Shown: in pieces, positions 14,967-23,900 of the stretch | Layout: every line of letters starts with the position of its first letter | Position numbering within the stretch: the stretch's first letter is position 1 | Position numbers and translations under genes: made by a program | The notes under the pieces: model-generated | What the model was told of the DNA's origin: nothing | Database searches by the model: none | The model's input: the letters and a program-made list of their open reading frames with translations, nothing else | NCBI GenBank assembly: GCA_019112865.1 | Contig: DXIN01000011.1 | Coordinates: 1 to 45,841, forward strand | Origin: Candidatus Helicobacter avicola | GTDB taxonomy: Bacteria > Campylobacterota > Campylobacteria > Campylobacterales > Helicobacteraceae | Length of the DNA stretch: 45,841 nt | Direction: 5' to 3'

Positions 14967-15059
14967 TTCTAACCTGTGTTTAAATCTTTGGATTGGTGTT
15001 GCAATGTTTTTGTATGGATTTGGGGGGAGATTCTAAGGAATGCTATTGCAGACTAAGGC

Positions 15060-15091
15060 ACAATCTACTACCTTAAAAGGTGGTAGATTGT
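15060..15091. terminator. Long stem-loop between convergent frdB and the outer-membrane gene
   Basis: Fifteen bases on each side pair (14 Watson-Crick plus one G-T) around a two-base loop. The stem ends nine bases from the last codon of the minus-strand gene. It lacks a strong T tract on the minus side and has a short TTTT on the plus side. A bidirectional terminator or transcript-end stabiliser is the likely role. Confidence 0.6.
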
Positions 15092-15099
15092 ATGAAGTT

Positions 15100-15747
15100 T
15101 TAGAAATTATAAGTGTAGCGCACGCCAAAGGCATAGGGTTGGAGGATTGACATTTTGACATCCATTCCACTTTCAGATGTTGTGGCACTCGCACCTATGA
15201 CGCCAAATCGGTTAAAGAACTCTATCCCATGGTGTTTAGCAAAAATCGTCCTCACACCAAAGTTTATCCCCATATCAAAACCTGAAGGATCTTTGAGCCC
15301 ACCATCAACTATATCTTTTACGATACCACCATAGTGAATCGCATAGCCAAATGAAAGACCAGCAAAAAGTCCTGCAGAGCTTGCTTCGCTAGCGTAGAAG
15401 TTATAGAGCGCATCGACATTTGCCATTACATTGAGGGTGTTGATAGTCTCGTGCAGATTCAAGCCAGCAGGTATTTGGTTTGCGCCATTATTGACTTGGA
15501 GGTATGCCCTCAAACCAAAGCTCTCGGTAAAAAACCACTTATAGCCACCCATAAGTCCATAGCGGAAGTTACCGACACTTGCTGCTTTTGCATTCAATCC
15601 AATTGTATCTCCAAGAGCACCTGCATCCATGTTCATCACGCTATTGCTCACTCCCAAATCCACACCCACAAAGCCACCGCTCTCCTCTGCCATAGCTACG
15701 CCACTAAGTGCTAGAGCCAACGCTCCACTTACCATAAGTTTTTTCAT
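15100..15747 (-). CDS. Small outer-membrane beta-barrel protein
   Basis: This 215-residue protein has a clear signal peptide: MKKL, a hydrophobic core, and cleavage after AMA near residue 20. Alternating hydrophobic strands follow, with a C-terminal RYTYNF ending in phenylalanine, the mark of BAM-assembled outer-membrane proteins. It resembles the small eight-to-ten-strand barrel proteins of Helicobacter; the exact family and ligand are unknown. AAGGAG precedes the ATG. About 90-100 bases upstream lies a nine-G run directly next to a -10-like TAGAAT, which suggests phase-variable transcription. Confidence 0.8.
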   Translation of the reverse strand: MKKLMVSGALALALSGVAMAEESGGFVGVDLGVSNSVMNMDAGALGDTIGLNAKAASVGNFRYGLMGGYKWFFTESFGLRAYLQVNNGANQIPAGLNLHETINTLNVMANVDALYNFYASEASSAGLFAGLSFGYAIHYGGIVKDIVDGGLKDPSGFDMGINFGVRTIFAKHHGIEFFNRFGVIGASATTSESGMDVKMSILQPYAFGVRYTYNF

Positions 15748-15839
15748 AAAAACTCCTTAATTTGTGTTTTTTTGTAGTTTTACTTACTCACGATAAAGAA
15801 TCTTGTGTGAGATTCTCTAGGACATAAATAAAACGCTTC

Positions 15840-15854
15840 ATTCTACCCCCCCCC
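15840..15854 (-). promoter_or_regulatory. Nine-G tract abutting a -10-like box upstream of the outer-membrane gene
   Basis: On the minus strand nine consecutive G (15854-15846) are followed at once by TAGAAT (15845-15840), about 93 bases before the outer-membrane ATG. A homopolymer in the spacer of a promoter can change -35/-10 spacing as it slips, a known way to switch surface proteins in Helicobacter and relatives. That TAGAAT is the true -10 is inference. Confidence 0.5.
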
Positions 15855-16019
15855 TTATAAGAAGCTTAAAAAGAGGATATTTCGTAAAAAATTTTTGAAA
15901 TTTTTGAAATTTGGAGCAATGTTCTCGTATGTGTGTGATAAATCCGTGCTATCGTGTTTGTGGCATAGTGATGTGTGGCATTGGGGAGTGGTAGGGAGAT
16001 GTGGAGTTTGGTGGGTAGC

Positions 16020-18014
16020 TTAGGTTTTGATACCAAACATCCATTGAGTATCAAAAAACCCCGCTACACTATGTGGGTCAAAGGGATTCCACTCAAGCCT
16101 TGGGTCTAGCTTGGTGTTTTCGTCTAGTGTGGATTCCGCGTTGCCTCTGTCTGTTATAATAGCAGACATAGCATTTTTTGCTATCTTATCACGCAGAGTG
16201 AGATAGCGGGATTCTAGCTCACTTTTGTTATGCGTGCTAAAAGTTTCTTGGCGCAGTCGCTCAAGCTCTTTCATATCATTTTCATATTCACGATAAAACA
16301 GCTGTTCTTGCTTTGGTAGCGGGATAAGGCTATTTGCCGAGACAAACTTAAACTCCAAGTTTGGTAGCGGTGCTATATGCTCACTAGGCGCATCACAAAT
16401 CAGCGAGAGAAAACAGCGCAAGCGAGCTATCTCTGTCGCCATAGGCTGTATATCCACGCCATAGATATTGTCTTGCAAAATCCTTAGTTTGCGCTCATAG
16501 GCGGATTGTGGCTCGCTCTTGCCCAAAATCTCATCGAGCTTTTCCCAAAGGTTTAGAATCTCTTGGAGCATACCCATAGGGAATGCTCCGCTTCCACACG
16601 CGGGATCGAGGATTTTGAGCGAATGCAACGCACGCAAGATAGTATCTGCCTCTTGTGTCGCTATCTCCTGCCCTCCGACTTCATCAAAGACAAGAGTTTT
16701 TAGCTTTTCATACTCTATTTTTTGCTCACATTTGGTGTGCAGGGATTGTGCTAATGCACTCTTGCACATATAGCTCACGATTTCGCGTGGCGTGTAGTAG
16801 CTCCCTGTGGCTTTGCGTTTGCTCATGGTTTTTTGCAAGTCTTTGTCGTCTTTTTTGTTGTCGGTGAATAGCACCGAGAGGAGATTCTCAAACACCATAC
16901 CCAAAAGCTCCGGGTCTAGTCCTATCTCTTGCGTGTAGGGCGTGGATTCATCGAGTGTGAAGTGGTAGCTATCTAGGGTTTTGAAAAGCTCCTCAAAGCA
17001 TTTATTGGGGACTATAAGGGTGTTTAGGTATCTGCTCATACCGGTTGTAGAATCCAGCTTGTAGTAGTCGCCATTTTCTTGTGGGGCGAAAAGTCCGCCA
17101 TTGAGGTATGGCACAGAATCTAAAAGTGCGACAATCTTAGATCCTGCAATATCGTTTAAAAGCCCATAGTTGCGGGATTCTCTAGGGGTATTGAGCGTGG
17201 TAAAAAAGAGTGGCTCACACACTTCGTGATAATACTCACTGCTCAAGCTCGTATCCCACAGCCTAGAATCCACCAACCCCTTTTTTTCTAAAAATTTGCA
17301 AAAAAGTATCCGCGAGAGTAGCCGTAGCACAAACTCGCGTTTGGTATCTGCCAAAGTATCTCCGCCCATATCCGCACCGCCCGCTTGCCCTGGCAGGCTG
17401 ATATGCTGGCAAAAATCTAGGAAATGCCCTGTGATAGCTTGGAAAAACTCGGCATTTAGCTTCTCTATGCTTAGAGCTTCTAAAATCGCTTTGTAATACT
17501 CATCGAGCGCGCCATGCTCAATACTAGCGATAGATAGTAGGTTTTTGATATGGGCTGGGTGTGGGGAGGCTAGGTCTATGCCTTTGATAAGTATGATTTT
17601 TTCTAGCACATCTTTTTTCTCGTGCGTGTTTTTGGCATAGCGGCGCGTGGCAAAGGCGATAGAGAGGTGCGTGGAGCTAAGGAAAAAGATGATGTTGTAG
17701 CTTGAAATGGCTTTGTTGATAGCTTTGGTCGCGGTGAGGAGGGCGGATCTGGAGGTGTCTGTGATAGGGATAAGCGAAAAGGCGAGGTTTTTGTGCTCGG
17801 TGCTTGTCGCTTGTCGCAGATGCGCTTCGTAATCTGCGTTGGTAAAGTAGATGATAGCTTCCTTTGGGTCAAAGAGGCTACTATCCTCAAGCACTGAAGT
17901 CTGGGCTAATGCGAGATTTTTAAAGCCAAAAAGCTTCTCAAGCAGGGCGTGAAAACTCTCCTGCGGGGTGGTTGGTAGAGATTGTAACAATGTCGCTATT
18001 TGTGTTTGGTTCAT
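16020..18014 (-). CDS. Adenine DNA methyltransferase, N-terminal half (SAM-binding part)
   Basis: This is the first half of a large Eco57I/N6-adenine-type methyltransferase, placed last in its operon. The ~400-residue N-terminal region is of the kind seen in type IIG and PglX-like enzymes (RILFCKFLEKKGL). Then come GSYYTPREIVSYM near residue 405, motif I ILDPACGSGAFPMGM near residue 466, and NIYGVDIQPMATEIARLRC near residue 515. It stops after WMFGIKT, just where an intact enzyme would continue into the catalytic NPPY motif, which is absent here. That motif begins the separate gene at 19194-20771. AAGGA precedes the ATG by six bases and the gap from the gene before is 10 bases, so it is a deliberate reading frame. 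It should be inactive alone and need the other half. Confidence 0.85.
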   Translation of the reverse strand: MNQTQIATLLQSLPTTPQESFHALLEKLFGFKNLALAQTSVLEDSSLFDPKEAIIYFTNADYEAHLRQATSTEHKNLAFSLIPITDTSRSALLTATKAINKAISSYNIIFFLSSTHLSIAFATRRYAKNTHEKKDVLEKIILIKGIDLASPHPAHIKNLLSIASIEHGALDEYYKAILEALSIEKLNAEFFQAITGHFLDFCQHISLPGQAGGADMGGDTLADTKREFVLRLLSRILFCKFLEKKGLVDSRLWDTSLSSEYYHEVCEPLFFTTLNTPRESRNYGLLNDIAGSKIVALLDSVPYLNGGLFAPQENGDYYKLDSTTGMSRYLNTLIVPNKCFEELFKTLDSYHFTLDESTPYTQEIGLDPELLGMVFENLLSVLFTDNKKDDKDLQKTMSKRKATGSYYTPREIVSYMCKSALAQSLHTKCEQKIEYEKLKTLVFDEVGGQEIATQEADTILRALHSLKILDPACGSGAFPMGMLQEILNLWEKLDEILGKSEPQSAYERKLRILQDNIYGVDIQPMATEIARLRCFLSLICDAPSEHIAPLPNLEFKFVSANSLIPLPKQEQLFYREYENDMKELERLRQETFSTHNKSELESRYLTLRDKIAKNAMSAIITDRGNAESTLDENTKLDPRLEWNPFDPHSVAGFFDTQWMFGIKT

Positions 18015-18024
18015 TGGTGATCCT

Positions 18025-19194
18025 TTAGTTTGGGATTATGGAATTTTTGCGTGCGGTTTTTTGGAGGGAGAAAACAAACAAAAATAGCAAAAGAGAGTAT
18101 GTAACTAATAGGAGGTTTTCTAATGCACCTTTAGAATATATCGCCCCACCTATAAAACCGCCCACACCTAAAATATATTTTGGAGCAACGCATATCATAC
18201 ATAGTGCAATAAAGCCATATATCAAGATTCTAAAGGGAGTGAAAAATACGCTGCAAAATATGAGAAAATATAGTAAATGTATTATGGTTTTTGTTCTTTC
18301 TAGTATTGCACAGGGTAGTTGTTGGAATAGACTAACAAGTCCATTGTCTTTATGGTATTGAGAAAATTTTTCTATGTCTAAGCCATATCGACTTACAAAG
18401 AGGAGTAACCCACATATCCCAATTAATGTGATAACCCAGCCTATAATTTTGGGTAAATCTGTATGGTGGTCGGAAGTGAGGCGGTAGAATTTTAAAACGA
18501 TATTATCTATCCATTCTTTTGAAAAAATTTTAGGCTTTTTGGAATCTAGCTCGATTTCTTTGCAATACAGCTCGATTCTATGGAATTTAGAGGCATCAAG
18601 GAGGTTATCTTGTCGGATAAGAGAGTGTTTGATAATTCTAAAAGAATCTCGTAAGTCTTTAGAAATATCACTAGACTCATTTCTTATCAATTCTTTTGTT
18701 TTATCATAAGAATCTTCTATGTCTATACCGACAAAATTTACAAAATCTAACTTATCAAAGCTTACTCTGGAAAAATTTGGTATTTCTTTAAAAATTACAT
18801 TCCAAAAACCTACCTTTTGCATAAATGCAGAATCTGTGGCGATAAAAAATCTGTCAAATTTAGCATTATCAAAATAAACATTACCCCTAAAATTGCAAGC
18901 CATAGCAGAGAAATTTTGATGAAATTCACACTCTTGAAAAAACACATCGCTATTAAAATATCTGCATTGTAAGGTAACATTTCCCATGAAAGTGGTATGT
19001 ATATTTCTGCCAAGCACGCCAAAAACTATTGGTATATTGTATTCATCAGCTTTGATTCGTATATCTTTTTCTATTATATAATGTTTCTCTTCTTTCTCTT
19101 TCACAAATTCTGGATATCTCTCTTTGAGATATTCTAATATGTCTTTATTCCCTATTTGCTCAATTGTAATAATTATTTCTTGACTTGATTCCAT
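18025..19194 (-). CDS. Pentapeptide-repeat membrane protein
   Basis: A 389-residue protein inserted between the two methyltransferase halves. Residues ~75-165 contain degenerate pentapeptide repeats with a phenylalanine every five residues (CNFRGNVYFDNAKFDRFF, NFSRVSFDKLDF), which fold as a right-handed quadrilateral helix. The last ~150 residues hold several hydrophobic spans (IIGWVITLIGICGLLLFVS, then three more), so it is likely membrane-anchored. The ATG at 19194 shares a base with the preceding stop (TGATG), and AAGGAGG lies just before it. Some pentapeptide proteins mimic DNA and bind gyrase, but nothing here proves that. Function unknown; position suggests a partner of the methyltransferase/helicase operon or a passenger. 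Confidence 0.75.
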   Translation of the reverse strand: MESSQEIIITIEQIGNKDILEYLKERYPEFVKEKEEKHYIIEKDIRIKADEYNIPIVFGVLGRNIHTTFMGNVTLQCRYFNSDVFFQECEFHQNFSAMACNFRGNVYFDNAKFDRFFIATDSAFMQKVGFWNVIFKEIPNFSRVSFDKLDFVNFVGIDIEDSYDKTKELIRNESSDISKDLRDSFRIIKHSLIRQDNLLDASKFHRIELYCKEIELDSKKPKIFSKEWIDNIVLKFYRLTSDHHTDLPKIIGWVITLIGICGLLLFVSRYGLDIEKFSQYHKDNGLVSLFQQLPCAILERTKTIIHLLYFLIFCSVFFTPFRILIYGFIALCMICVAPKYILGVGGFIGGAIYSKGALENLLLVTYSLLLFLFVFSLQKTARKNSIIPN

Positions 19195-20771
19195 CACTCA
19201 CCTCCTTGTATGATTTGGATTTCGGATTCTGTGAGATTGTAGAGGGCATAGACGAGGGAGTCTATTTGGGATTCTAACTCACTCGTGTTGGCATTAGAAT
19301 CTTTAGCTTTAGATTCTACAATCTGCTTGACTAAAGTGATGATTTCATCTGCTAGGGTTTGGTTAGATTCTGTGATTTTGGGGATTGGGAGTTTTTCTAT
19401 CTTATCTTTTGCACCATAAGCGTATTGTCCCGTTTGGATTAAATTTGTCATTTGTGTAATAAGCCATTTATAAAGCCTAGAGTTCATAAGCCCTAAGATA
19501 TAAAGTAAGGTTGAATCTCTTTGTTCCTTAGAAGAGGATTTCTCATTTTTACAGCCTAGATTGCTCGTCATTTCATTCCCTGCAATGACAGAATCTTTTT
19601 GCGTTATCATAAAAAGTGAGTTGTTAAAATACATAAGTTCTTTTATGTAGCTAAAAAAATACTCTCCACTTACAGGATTCCACACAATCTTAGCTTTAGC
19701 AAATTCCTCGTAGTAAGCGATATTATCTTGTGTTTCAAACCATTTGTTAGAAGTCTTTTTCCTGCAACCTTTTTCACCGCTTTGCTCTATGCGTGGCAAA
19801 AATGTAGCAAGATAGTTTTTCATACTTGGATACTCGTCTATATCAAGCTTTAACGCTGGAAAAGTGCCGATTATCCACAAACCCGCCCACTCATAGCTAT
19901 ATCTTTTTATATCTCGTCCTCGTAAAATGGGCTTTATAAGCTCATTTGTGCGTTGTCGTTCGCTAAAGCCACTAGAATCCACACTTGCCTCGCTATCATC
20001 ACAAGATTCCAAAAGCTCTTCTCTTTTGGCAGAATCTATGATAAAGGCTTCGTTATAGCCTGTCAAAACTCCACGATATATAGAGATGTCCCAATCCTTT
20101 AGCGGTGTGCCTATCTTTTCTATCTTTGCTTTGAGTTTGGCTAGCTTTTCATCAGCAAAGATAAAGGCTTCTTTGCTAAGGCTGCTTTGCTTAAGGCTTG
20201 AAAAGTCCTCTTTGCTTAGCTTCGTGAGGTCGTTATTGCACTCTTTTAGCCTTTCATTATCTAAGGCTAGGTAGGAAAAATAAAATTCTCCTATGTCGTC
20301 ATGTTGAGGCGTAGCCAAAACATCTCTTTTAGATTCTTCATGCTTACAGCCCTCAGAATGACGGAGGGAGGAGTCGCAATGACGGATGGGGTTTAAAGGA
20401 GCTTTTTTCTTAAAACTTAGTATGCTAGTATCCACCGTAGCGTTGGCAAAAACTTTCACGCCATTTAAGTCAATATAACTTAGAATTTGGGTGTTTTGTA
20501 GCACAAACTCTCGCAACGCCTCGCCATAGCCTGCGCGCGTGTATTTGTTGCTCGTGATAAAGGAGAGAATCCCGCTAGATTTTAGAATCTTAAACCCAAG
20601 CTCATAAAAATAGGTGTAAATATCGCTTGTGCCTTTATAAATGCTAAAGGCTTTTTGCAAATGGGGCTTTAGGTGCTTTATCTCTTCTTGGCGGATATAG
20701 GGTGGGTTGCCAATGACGATGTCAAAGCCGTTGTGCTGTGAATCTGTAGTTTGTGAATCTATTGGCTTCAT
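19194..20771 (-). CDS. Adenine DNA methyltransferase, C-terminal half (catalytic NPPY and target recognition)
   Basis: This 525-residue protein starts at the point where the 16020-18014 protein ends. After 14 residues comes FDIVIGNPPYIRQEE with catalytic NPPY at 22-25. Methyltransferase fold remnants (LGFKILKSSGILSFITSNKY) follow, then a TaqI/Eco57I-like specificity region (RPI-type block NELIKPILRGRDIKRYSYEW, and LIQTGQYAYGAKDKIEKLPIP at the end). Motif I is absent. The ATG at 20771 overlaps the helicase stop as ATGA, with AGGAG seven bases upstream; a longer GTG frame to 20831 has no such support. Two stretches coded at 20297-20384 and about 19541-19591 look like intergenic repeats read in frame, so its target specificity may have been altered. 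Confidence 0.85.
   Translation of the reverse strand: MKPIDSQTTDSQHNGFDIVIGNPPYIRQEEIKHLKPHLQKAFSIYKGTSDIYTYFYELGFKILKSSGILSFITSNKYTRAGYGEALREFVLQNTQILSYIDLNGVKVFANATVDTSILSFKKKAPLNPIRHCDSSLRHSEGCKHEESKRDVLATPQHDDIGEFYFSYLALDNERLKECNNDLTKLSKEDFSSLKQSSLSKEAFIFADEKLAKLKAKIEKIGTPLKDWDISIYRGVLTGYNEAFIIDSAKREELLESCDDSEASVDSSGFSERQRTNELIKPILRGRDIKRYSYEWAGLWIIGTFPALKLDIDEYPSMKNYLATFLPRIEQSGEKGCRKKTSNKWFETQDNIAYYEEFAKAKIVWNPVSGEYFFSYIKELMYFNNSLFMITQKDSVIAGNEMTSNLGCKNEKSSSKEQRDSTLLYILGLMNSRLYKWLITQMTNLIQTGQYAYGAKDKIEKLPIPKITESNQTLADEIITLVKQIVESKAKDSNANTSELESQIDSLVYALYNLTESEIQIIQGGE
19541..19591. repeat. Second repeat-like stretch inside the methyltransferase C-half
   Basis: On the minus strand the sequence contains CTGTCATTGCAGGGAATG, AAATGACGAGCAATCTAG and GGCTGTAAAAATGAG. 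It shares GTCATTGC, ATGACG and GGCTGTAA..ATGA with the 20297-20384 element and has inverted GTCATT/AATGAC-like arms. It is read in frame as part of SVIAGNEMTSNLGCKNEK, which breaks the otherwise regular specificity domain. Confidence 0.45.
20297..20384. repeat. Palindrome-ended intergenic-type repeat inserted in frame in the methyltransferase C-half
   Basis: The 88-base stretch has inverted ends CGTCAT/ATGACG and an internal CCGTCATTCTGAGGG, a word typical of dispersed non-coding repeats. It is translated without a stop as a hydrophilic Cys/His/Ser-rich insert (RHCDSSLRHSEGCKHEESKR) that has no counterpart expected in a specificity domain. The situation resembles the protein-coding palindromic elements of Rickettsia. 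Confidence 0.55.
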
Positions 20772-23700
20772 TTGTGCTCTCCTGTGGTGGCGGGATTGAG
20801 GGTCGCAAAGTCGGGATTTATCAGTAGCCACGCGATGAGCCTAAATCTCTTGCGTGCGGTTGGGATAAGCCCACCATCACTTTTTTTGTGGGATTCTCGC
20901 TCTTTGGTTATCAAGCGTATCTGCTCATCAAGCGCGTTTGTGAGGGATAAAAATCGATCTTTTAAAAACCCTATATCACGATAGGTAGCACTAATGCGCT
21001 CAAGCTCTCTAAAGGCGTCTGTGGGTATCGAAGTATCTTTGATATGGGGGAGGAGTTTGGCGAGATTGTGCTCGCCGCTTGGGTGCGTAGCACTGGGGTG
21101 TAGGGTGCGATCATAGAGTGTGAAATACAAACCTTTGCTTTGAATGTCTTGCAGGGCTGCAAAAATCGTGTTGCACTCCAAATGCGGAATCTGTATGATA
21201 GAGAATATCCCATCGCTCGCACGCGCACCCTCGCCCACTTCGTAGGATAGGGATTGGAGGAGTTTCTGTGGGGAGTTGAAAAGTGTTGTGTTTTCCTCAA
21301 ATGCTATGAGGTTTTCTGTGAGCATTTGGCGGTATCTTTGGAAATGCTCATCTTGGGCTTTTTGATCCAGACTAAAGGGATTGTGCGTGTGTGTCGTGCT
21401 TTGGGAGGCTATGAGCTTGAATTTTAATCGCTGCTCAAGCTTGATGTATGAATCTATCTCGATGTCGGGGAAAAAGTGCGCTATAAAAATCCTATCGTGT
21501 GGCGAGCCTATGCGGTGAATCCGCCCTGTGCGCTGGATAGATCGCACGGGATTGAAAGCGATATCCCAATTTATGAGATTGGCGCAGTCTTGGAGGTTTT
21601 GCCCCTCGCTCAAGACATCGGTGGCGACTAGGATATCGATAGCTCGCTTATCGTCTAGTGGGTAGCCCTGCGCGCGTGGGGCGAATTGCCCTGTGAGGGT
21701 GGTAAATTTGCTCTTTGTATCGCCTGTGATATATGCGATACGAAGATGTGGGTATGCGTGCTGCAGGGATCGACATATCGCACGTGCTGTGGGGATAGAT
21801 TCGGTAAAGATGAGGAGTTTCTCCTCTGTGATGCGGGCTTGGTGGGATTTGATAAAATCCGATAAGGCTTGGAACTTGGGAGATTTGGCAAAGTCCGTCT
21901 TGGGGTTGTAGGATACAAAGAGGGATTTGATTTGATTGAGTTTTTCTACATCTTCTTTGAGGGTGTGCATAAAACGAGAATCTAAAGAGCCTAAGAGGTC
22001 TAAATCTACGAGATTTTTTAGGCGCGTGGGCAAAAGGGTAGAATCTATCTCATCATTTTCTTGTTGGTCGTTTTCGCGCTCAATGGAGAGAGAATCTAAA
22101 AAATAGTCGTGGTGGGCGATGATTTTCTCTAGTGTCTGCAAAAACGCATCGACAGAGCTCTCGAGGCTTTTGAGTAGCGACATAGTGATAAAGCCTCTGG
22201 GGGTGGTGTATTCGCCGAGATTCTCAAGATGAGATTCTTTGATTTGCTGTGCGATATGAGGTGGCAAAAACTTATAGGGATCATAGATACTAAAGCTAAT
22301 GCCTAAAGATTGTGTTTGGGCATTTTCATCTGTGTCTATGCCCAGAATCTCTAGGAGTTTTTGGTAGCTAAAATCGATGTGCTTTGGAATACTTGAGAGA
22401 TGTTGCGTCTTAATGTCTGGTGTGGGCAAGTCTTTGCTAAGGTTGCGTAGCTCACTTGCGATCTCTGCGCTAGAGCGCGAAAAAATGAGCGATGTGAGAT
22501 AATAATACTCTTGTGGCAAGGGCTTTTGCTCGATAAGCTGTTTTTGGGCATAGCGGCATATTTCATGGGGATTTATAGGAGTATTGTGGAGTGTGATTGT
22601 GTCGGTAAATAAGCCAATCTGATTGGCAAAATCTAGCAAGCTGTTGTTGATAATAGTCGCGCTTAGAGCGAGAAAATCACAATCCCTGCTGATGTTTGCG
22701 CGCAATCGCGTATAGTTGTTGGCACTATTTGCTTTGGGTGCGCCATTGCGGAAAGTGTGGCTTTCATCAAGCACGATGAGATCTGCGGATTGTATCAGGG
22801 AGCGATTGTGCTCTTGGGAGGCTTCGTGGTAGCTAAAAATCTTGATCCTAAAGCAGAGGTTGTCCAAAAACTCTTTTTGGGTTTGTGAATCTAGCGATCG
22901 TTTGAAATAGCTATCCCATTGGGCTTTGAGATTTTTAGGAGTGATGATAACCGGACGCTTATAGAGGCTTATCACGCCAAGCGCACTTAGAGTTTTCCCA
23001 GCACCCACGGGATCTCCCAAAAAGGCTATGTGATAAGTTTTGAGTCGTTTATAAAGCTCCTTGGCGGCGACAAGCTGGAAATCATAGAGTCCAAAGACTT
23101 CTTGTGCGAGGCTTAGTCTATCTTGCTCACTTTGCTGGAGTGGGGTATCACTCGGAAAAAGCGCGATGAGCTTGCTTAGCACATCACAAGGGCTATGATA
23201 CAAAAAACTGGATTTGAGATTGTCTGCGACTTCTGCGCTCACATCGGTGCATTGATCGCGCAGGGTGGTGAAGTATCTAAGCGCGTATTCTGTGTCTTGA
23301 TGACTATCACACAAGAGATTTAGCTCGATATTAGCCTTATCTCCTCCGTAGATTCCAAGTCCGCTGGCAGTGAGGTTGGAGCTACCTATGATAGCAAAGC
23401 TTTTGTGGGCTTTGTTGGCGTGTTGGTGGAGGAGATAGAGCTTGGAGTGGATAAGGACATTGCGATCTTTGAGCGCATAGACTTTGACATCACAGGTGGT
23501 GTCTGTGATAAACTCAAGGGCTTCTTGGTATGTGGTGAGTAGCTCAAGCTGCTTGGCAAAGTCTTTGATCTCTAGGTCAAAAGGATCGCAAAATGCAAAA
23601 GCGATGGATTGTGTGTCACTTTGGCTTGGGGTGGTCTTGCCAATGATGATATGGAGTGAATTGAGCTTGGGGGCGAAAGATGTGGCTATGGCTTGGAGGG

Positions 23701-23900
23701 CTTGGGCGTTGAAAAATCCGCTGATAACCCACAAATCGAGTTTAGAATCTATCGAAGCGTAGGTGTCAAAGAGATGCTGGAGTTTTGTAAAAAGTGTGTT
23801 TGTGCCTTCGTTGGTGATGAGGTTTGTGGAGGTTTGGTCAGAATCTATCTCAAGAGTTTGTTGCCCCCCCCCCAAATTTGCCTATATGACGAACTTGCAT
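20768..23900 (-). CDS. PLD nuclease-SNF2 helicase fusion, phase-variable, out of frame in this sequence
   Basis: A ~1040-residue defence-type enzyme. An N-terminal phospholipase D nuclease domain has HSKLYLL near residue 140 and GSSNLTASG near 160. A superfamily 2/SNF2 motor follows: Walker A GDPVGAGKT near 290, LDESH near 367, LSATI near 403, ATDVLSEGQNLQD near 750 and QRTGRIHRIGS near 785. The best start is the ATG at 23900 with AAGGA six bases upstream, but codons 10-13 run into ten G (23873-23864). With ten, translation from this ATG stops after 16 codons; with nine it reads through. A TTG at 23875 is in frame but lacks a ribosome site. The next gene starts in its ATGA. PLD plus helicase plus adenine methylase recalls DISARM parts (DrmC, DrmD, DrmMI) and ATP-dependent PLD restriction enzymes. 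Confidence 0.88.
23864..23873 (-). repeat. Ten-G slippage tract in the helicase 5' coding region
   Basis: Ten consecutive G on the coding strand start exactly after nine codons from the ATG at 23900. Only a count divisible by three joins that start to the long frame, so the present ten gives OFF. Tracts of this type are the usual switches of Helicobacter and Campylobacter contingency genes. Confidence 0.85.

What the first reader, a model, noticed from the sequence alone, without database searches (positions are those of the whole stretch)
15840..15854. Nine-G tract next to a -10 box: likely phase-variable outer-membrane protein
The run lies directly upstream of TAGAAT and about 93 bases before the gene, where slippage would alter promoter geometry. 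Two long G tracts thus flank the defence operon, one at its first gene and one just beyond its last.
Basis: partly seen in the sequence, partly recalled or inferred. Interest (0 to 1): 0.6.

Follow-up and report, generated by a model that had tools for sequence, protein, structure and literature searches.

The report
Slippery G-run inside surface-protein promoter
A run of nine G's sits inside the promoter of a Helicobacter outer-membrane-protein gene, where copying errors that change its length should turn the gene up or down; this is a known kind of switch, but the same promoter layout recurs before surface-protein genes across this bacterial family.

Summary
On the minus strand the window reads TTAAGC-TTCTTATAA-G9-TAGAAT (15869-15840), 92 bases before the ATG of a 215-aa HP_OMP outer-membrane protein (Pfam E = 7.7e-16). 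The tract lies inside a promoter spacer. The module TTAAGC-N9-Gn-(A)TAGAAT occurs six times in this genome, before outer-membrane-protein paralogues and one unrelated gene, with n = 9-10 and spacers of 18-20. In 121 Helicobacteraceae genomes, TTAAGC and TANAAT flanking a G8+ run gave 78 distinct sites in 42 genomes; the reversed-pattern control gave none. The run ends 0-2 bases before the -10 in 57 of the 78. Of 32 proteins read downstream of such modules, 15 match HP_OMP. Same-genus orthologues have the same 20-nt geometry without G's. Near-identical loci in two genomes differ by one G (12 versus 13). Tract-free TTAAGC-TATAAT promoters of the genus peak at spacers of 10 and 20-21, so slippage should move this promoter away from or towards a natural optimum. 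Transcriptional phase variation is well supported but not shown; it works like meningococcal porA. The link with the neighbouring defence operon is coincidence: the genome has 89 runs of nine or more G's.

The parts
15864..15869 (-). TTAAGC upstream (-35-like) promoter element
   Evidence: Sequence. Identical in six own-genome copies; TTAAG also present at the same place in the two same-genus orthologues; TTAAGC-TATAAT spacing is non-random in the genus.
15855..15863 (-). Fixed part of the spacer, TTCTTATAA
   Evidence: Identical in six own-genome copies; other genera mostly have a different 6-11 nt here.
15846..15854 (-). G9 tract, the variable part of the spacer (total spacer 18 nt)
   Evidence: Other own-genome copies are G9+A (spacer 19) and G10+A (spacer 20).
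15840..15845 (-). -10 hexamer TAGAAT
   Evidence: Sequence; aligned without gaps between the C13 paralogue (TAGAAT) and two tract-free orthologues (TAAAAT); the tract end lies 0-2 nt from a TANAAT in 57 of 78 family sites.
15753..15758 (-). Shine-Dalgarno AAGGAG
   Evidence: Sequence; conserved in paralogues and orthologues.
15100..15747 (-). HP_OMP outer-membrane protein, 215 aa, signal-peptide-like start and C-terminal phenylalanine
   Evidence: Pfam PF01856 E = 7.7e-16; four further paralogues in the genome, 61-77% identical.
23864..23873 (-). Second tract (G10), within the 5' coding end of the defence helicase gene; a separate, translational-type switch
   Evidence: From the ATG at 23900 the frame runs 16 aa with G10 and 1043 aa with G9.

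Best explanation
The G9 tract is the length-variable part of the spacer of the promoter of an HP_OMP gene. RNA polymerase would recognise TTAAGC (15869-15864) and TAGAAT (15845-15840) and start about 7 nt further on, near 15833 (inferred). Slipped-strand mispairing at the tract would change the TTAAGC-TAGAAT distance one base at a time and so raise or lower transcription in a graded way. The paralogues that carry the module, and an unrelated gene with the same module, would vary independently, giving combinatorial variation of the surface. Shown: the module, its recurrence, its gene context and its tract-length differences. Inferred: polymerase use, start site, switching rate and effect on expression. 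Prediction: the window allele (spacer 18) is weaker than the C13 paralogue (spacer 20), because tract-free promoters and the tract-free orthologues sit at 20-21.
For: Six copies of the module in the genome, including one before an unrelated gene. Tract-free orthologues in two same-genus genomes align without gaps to the C13 paralogue: TTAAGG-N20-TAAAAT against TTAAGC-N20-TAGAAT, with the G-run replacing AATTTAGAG. In 121 family genomes the strict pattern has 31 sites in 21 genomes against 0 in the reversed control. The free-gap pattern has 78 distinct sites in 42 genomes against 0, with the tract end 0-2 nt from the -10 in 57 of 78. Among 85k species, 18 of 21 hits are Campylobacterota. Of 32 downstream proteins, 15 match HP_OMP and 9 match OMP_b-brl. 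A 99% identical 1.8-kb pair differs G12 versus G13, and orthologues in two species differ G10 versus G14. The natural TTAAGC-TATAAT spacing peaks at 10 and 20-21.
Against: No transcription-start or expression data. No same-species strains or reads were available, so variation at this very tract is not shown. Many module tracts outside genus g11 are exactly G9 with spacer 19, which could mean slow slippage or selection for one length. Helicobacter promoters tolerate poor -35 elements (own knowledge), so spacing effects may be modest. Binomial figures ignore relatedness of genomes.
Confidence: 0.82

Rival explanations
1. The tract is transcribed: the start site lies upstream, the G-run is in the mRNA leader, and its length sets control by a C/U-rich small RNA, as RepG does on tlpB in H. 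pylori.
For: RepG acts on a G-repeat in an mRNA leader in H. pylori (PMC8295292). A TATAAG lies just upstream of the tract.
Against: The TANAAT abutting the tract, and TTAAGC mostly 6-11 nt before it, are conserved while the sequence at TATAAG is not. Tract-free orthologues keep the -10 at the same place. Rfam found nothing in the window at gathering thresholds. A RepG homologue was not sought in the rest of the genome.
Confidence: 0.07
2. A length rheostat of the sabA kind (a variant of the best explanation): the tract changes the rotational alignment of an upstream, AT-rich element with the core promoter instead of a strict -35/-10 distance, so output is periodic at about 10 bp.
For: H. pylori sabA behaves so with a T-tract, with maxima and minima about ten bp apart (PMC4081817). 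TTAAGC-TATAAT spacing has two peaks one helical turn apart, 10 and 20-21, and tract promoters occur at spacers of 12-14 and 17-24.
Against: sabA's tract is adjacent to the -35 element, outside the -35/-10 spacer. No expression data distinguish the two.
Confidence: 0.25
3. The tract is a by-product of a tract-rich genome (89 runs of G9 or more) with no regulatory effect.
For: Poly-G is common in this genome.
Against: Eight of the 89 tracts abut TANAAT, all of them between genes and before genes for exported proteins where the gene is visible. Placement is conserved across genera with zero control hits.
Confidence: 0.06

Closest known systems
Neisseria meningitidis porA promoter (also opc, fetA)
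   Same: Homopolymer between the -35 and -10 of an outer-membrane-protein promoter; length change alters expression level in steps (PMC3639595; PMC2791445).
   Different: Different phylum, a different upstream element (TTAAGC) and gene family; here the module is shared by several paralogues and the tract ends 0-2 nt from the -10. No expression data here.
Helicobacter canadensis promoter-located homopolymer tracts (five promoter candidates, four of them poly-G)
   Same: Same group of bacteria, poly-G in predicted promoters, length variation seen in sequence reads (PMC2823697).
   Different: The genes named there include vacuolating-cytotoxin-like and IgA-protease-like genes; the passages read do not describe the TTAAGC-Gn-TANAAT layout.
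H. pylori sabA T-tract rheostat
   Same: Intergenic homopolymer tuning an outer-membrane adhesin promoter (PMC4081817).
   Different: T-tract adjacent to the -35, not a G-tract inside the spacer.
H. pylori RepG-tlpB leader G-repeat
   Same: Variable G-run upstream of a Helicobacter gene (PMC8295292).
   Different: Lies in the transcribed leader and acts through a small RNA.

Membership tests
Transcriptional phase variation by promoter-spacer homopolymer (porA kind) | Homopolymer lies between the two promoter hexamers | tested here: met
   TTAAGC-N9-G9-TAGAAT in the window; 57 of 78 family sites with the tract end 0-2 nt from the -10, control 0. Assignment of the hexamers is by sequence and comparison only.
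Transcriptional phase variation by promoter-spacer homopolymer (porA kind) | Tract length varies between close relatives | tested here: met
   G12 versus G13 on 99% identical 1.8 kb; G10 versus G14 in orthologues; own-genome copies with spacers 18, 19 and 20. Not tested within the window's species.
Transcriptional phase variation by promoter-spacer homopolymer (porA kind) | Expression level depends on tract length, reversibly and at high frequency | not testable with these tools
   Needs reporter or RNA data.
HP_OMP outer-membrane protein family (PF01856) | Match above the curated cut-off | tested here: met
   59 bits against a cut-off of 21, residues 65-215 of 215 to profile 2-154 of 154.
RepG-type leader G-repeat | G-repeat lies downstream of the transcription start | tested here: inconclusive
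   The conserved -10 lies just downstream of the tract, which argues against it; the start was not mapped.

The most novel reading that the evidence does not exclude
Helicobacteraceae and some relatives share a promoter class, TTAAGC-N(0-11)-G(8-19)-(0-2 nt)-TANAAT, in which a G-run abutting the -10 sets the helical phase of an upstream TTAAGC box. It is used mainly by surface-protein genes and reused by several paralogues per genome, so that one layout drives combinatorial, graded variation of the outer-membrane-protein repertoire.
Probability: 0.5. Interest if true: 0.55.

Novelty: new member of a known kind. Interest (0 to 1): 0.42.

Why it matters
It turns one tract into a testable, sequence-defined rule for finding transcriptionally phase-variable surface proteins in Helicobacteraceae, and gives a direction for each allele (distance from a 20-21 nt spacer). 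If the rule holds, surface variation in little-studied Helicobacter species can be read from genomes.

Tried and rejected
Tying the tract to the defence operon: rejected. The operon is a separate gene set, tract density makes the coincidence likely, and the same module precedes outer-membrane-protein paralogues on other contigs. Generic sigma-70 scan of 15000-16300: no signal beyond shuffles, because it looks for TTGACA. Text searches for a prior description of this exact layout found none, but many subscription papers are not in that library. The first homologue-upstream scan took no account of strand and was redone. Leader folding: only mildly stable (z = -2.0), not pursued. In one search the pattern itself limited spacers to 15-22, so the spacing distribution was retested with free gaps.

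Full report
OBSERVATION. On the minus strand the window reads TTAAGC TTCTTATAA GGGGGGGGG TAGAAT from 15869 to 15840, then 92 bases, with AAGGAG at 15758-15753, to the ATG at 15747. Five G8 words occur in the window against 0.29 expected in dinucleotide shuffles; one of 100 shuffles reached five. They form two tracts: this G9, and G10 at 23864-23873.

THE GENE. The ORF at 15747-15100 encodes 215 aa with a signal-peptide-like start (MKKLMVSGALALALSGVAMA) and a C-terminal phenylalanine. It matches Pfam HP_OMP (PF01856), E = 7.7e-16, to the end of the profile. Four paralogues, 61-77% identical, lie elsewhere in the same genome. Same-genus and same-family genomes hold homologues.

THE MODULE IN THIS GENOME. 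TTAAGCTTCTTATAA occurs exactly six times, each time followed by a G-run and TAGAAT. C1 (the window) has G9 and no A, so a spacer of 18. C3, C24, C26 and C37 have G9 plus A, a spacer of 19. C13 has G10 plus A, a spacer of 20. C13 precedes a paralogue of the window gene. C3 precedes an unrelated 450-aa protein; DUF3373 appears once in the scan of the module's downstream proteins, and I assign it to this one. C24, C26 and C37 break off at contig ends inside or just after the module. C26 and C37 end in the same roughly 90 bases with which C27 and C28, two paralogue contigs, begin, so those paralogues very likely carry the module too (inference). C3 and C24 share 36 identical bases across the module and little else. 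Of the 89 runs of G9 or longer in the genome, eight abut a TANAAT within one base. Besides the six there are C24:30170 and C24:73671, both before genes for exported proteins, one a lipoprotein. Most of the other tracts lie inside open frames.

EVOLUTION OF THE PROMOTER. Two same-genus orthologues (60-61% identical) have no tract. Their upstream region aligns without a gap to the C13 paralogue across the promoter: TTAAGG-20-TAAAAT against TTAAGC-20-TAGAAT, with the G-run in place of AATTTAGAG. The two hexamers and their distance are thus kept while the sequence between differs as homopolymer against mixed sequence. This is direct comparative support for TAGAAT as the -10.

RECURRENCE. A strict pattern (TTAAGC, 8-10 nt, G6, 1-6 nt, TANAAT) has 31 sites in 21 of 121 family genomes and none in the reversed-pattern control. 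With both gaps free from 0 to 30, 42 of 121 genomes match, again against zero control. Of 78 distinct sites, the G-run ends 0-2 nt before TANAAT in 57, where about 7.5 would be expected if placement were uniform. The nominal P of 1e-40 ignores relatedness and should be read only as strong. In one representative of each of 85k species, 18 of 21 stretches are from Campylobacterota, among them H. brantae, H. anseris, H. japonicus, several Helicobacteraceae MAGs, an Arcobacter MAG and a Campylobacter MAG with seven copies. Of 32 proteins read directly downstream of the module, 15 match HP_OMP and nine match OMP_b-brl (some may match both). The pattern searches knew nothing of the gene, so this enrichment is independent of how the sites were found.

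LENGTH VARIATION. Two loci 99% identical over 1.8 kb, held in genomes assigned to two genera, differ by one G (12 versus 13). Orthologues in two species of one genus, 83% identical overall with closely similar promoter flanks, differ G10 versus G14. Within that genus outer-membrane-protein module tracts range from G7 to G19. Variation at the window's own tract could not be tested: no same-species strains or reads were available.

WHY LENGTH SHOULD MATTER. In six genomes of the genus, TTAAGC followed by TATAAT at 10-28 nt is far commoner than its reversed control. Tract-free cases peak at spacers of 10 (39 cases) and 20-21 (38 cases), one helical turn apart. The tract promoters mostly fall at 18-24, mode 19, with a few at 12-14. 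The window allele, at 18, is two short of the natural optimum and of the tract-free orthologues. My prediction, not a result, is that it is a weak allele and that a tract two G's longer would transcribe better. That TTAAGC is a Helicobacter -35-type element also agrees with my memory of the H. pylori promoter literature, which I could not check here (one search found no such paper).

MECHANISM AND RIVALS. The best reading is porA-like transcriptional phase variation: poly-G between -35 and -10 of an outer-membrane-protein promoter, graded output. A sabA-like helical rheostat is a variant that the two spacing peaks make plausible. A RepG-like leader mechanism needs the start upstream of the tract and is disfavoured by the conserved -10. 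A neutral by-product is disfavoured by placement.

THE 'FLANKING' CLAIM. The G10 tract at 23864-23873 sits near the start of the PLD-SNF2 helicase gene. From the ATG at 23900 the frame runs 16 aa with G10 and 1043 aa with G9, so the gene reads OFF from that ATG in this assembly. It is a translational-type tract, unlike the one studied here. With one tract per about 20 kb the proximity needs no explanation.

VERDICT. Observation confirmed, interpretation supported, kind already known, with a broader and possibly undescribed promoter class behind it.

Noticed in passing
window 23864-23900, - strand: The defence helicase reads OFF from its ATG (16 aa) with the assembled G10 and would read 1043 aa with G9; a TTG start at the edge of the tract could bypass it.
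   Followed up: partly
window 16020-20831, - strand: A type IIG-like enzyme appears split and permuted: the C-terminal half (19194-20831) precedes the N-terminal half (16020-18014), with a 390-aa protein without Pfam match between them.
   Followed up: no
Own-genome contigs C21, C24, C26, C27, C28, C37: Contig ends fall in or within about 100 bases of the shared promoter module or the start of its gene, so the assembly breaks at these repeats; recombination among the copies is possible.
   Followed up: partly
Own-genome C10, about 5-24 kb (L037, L038): A row of 13 poly-G tracts on one strand, about one per gene, mostly inside open frames.
   Followed up: no
Genus genomes: TTAAGC-TATAAT spacing has two sharp peaks, at 10 and at 20-21 nt, one helical turn apart.
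   Followed up: partly
G003:C19:105-135 and G003:C54:105-135: A poly-C version of the module (TTAAGC-TTAGATTAA-C9A or C10-TATAAT), twice, both close to contig starts.
   Followed up: no
L144 and L179: Orthologous loci 83% identical up to the -10 of a tract promoter, then mostly unrelated sequence where the gene is, then similar again: the gene behind the promoter seems to have been exchanged.
   Followed up: no
L166, L168, L172-L174, L180, L182 (MAG RGIG8913): Seven copies of the same layout, all G9 with spacer 19, before outer-membrane-like genes where readable, in one Campylobacter MAG.
   Followed up: partly
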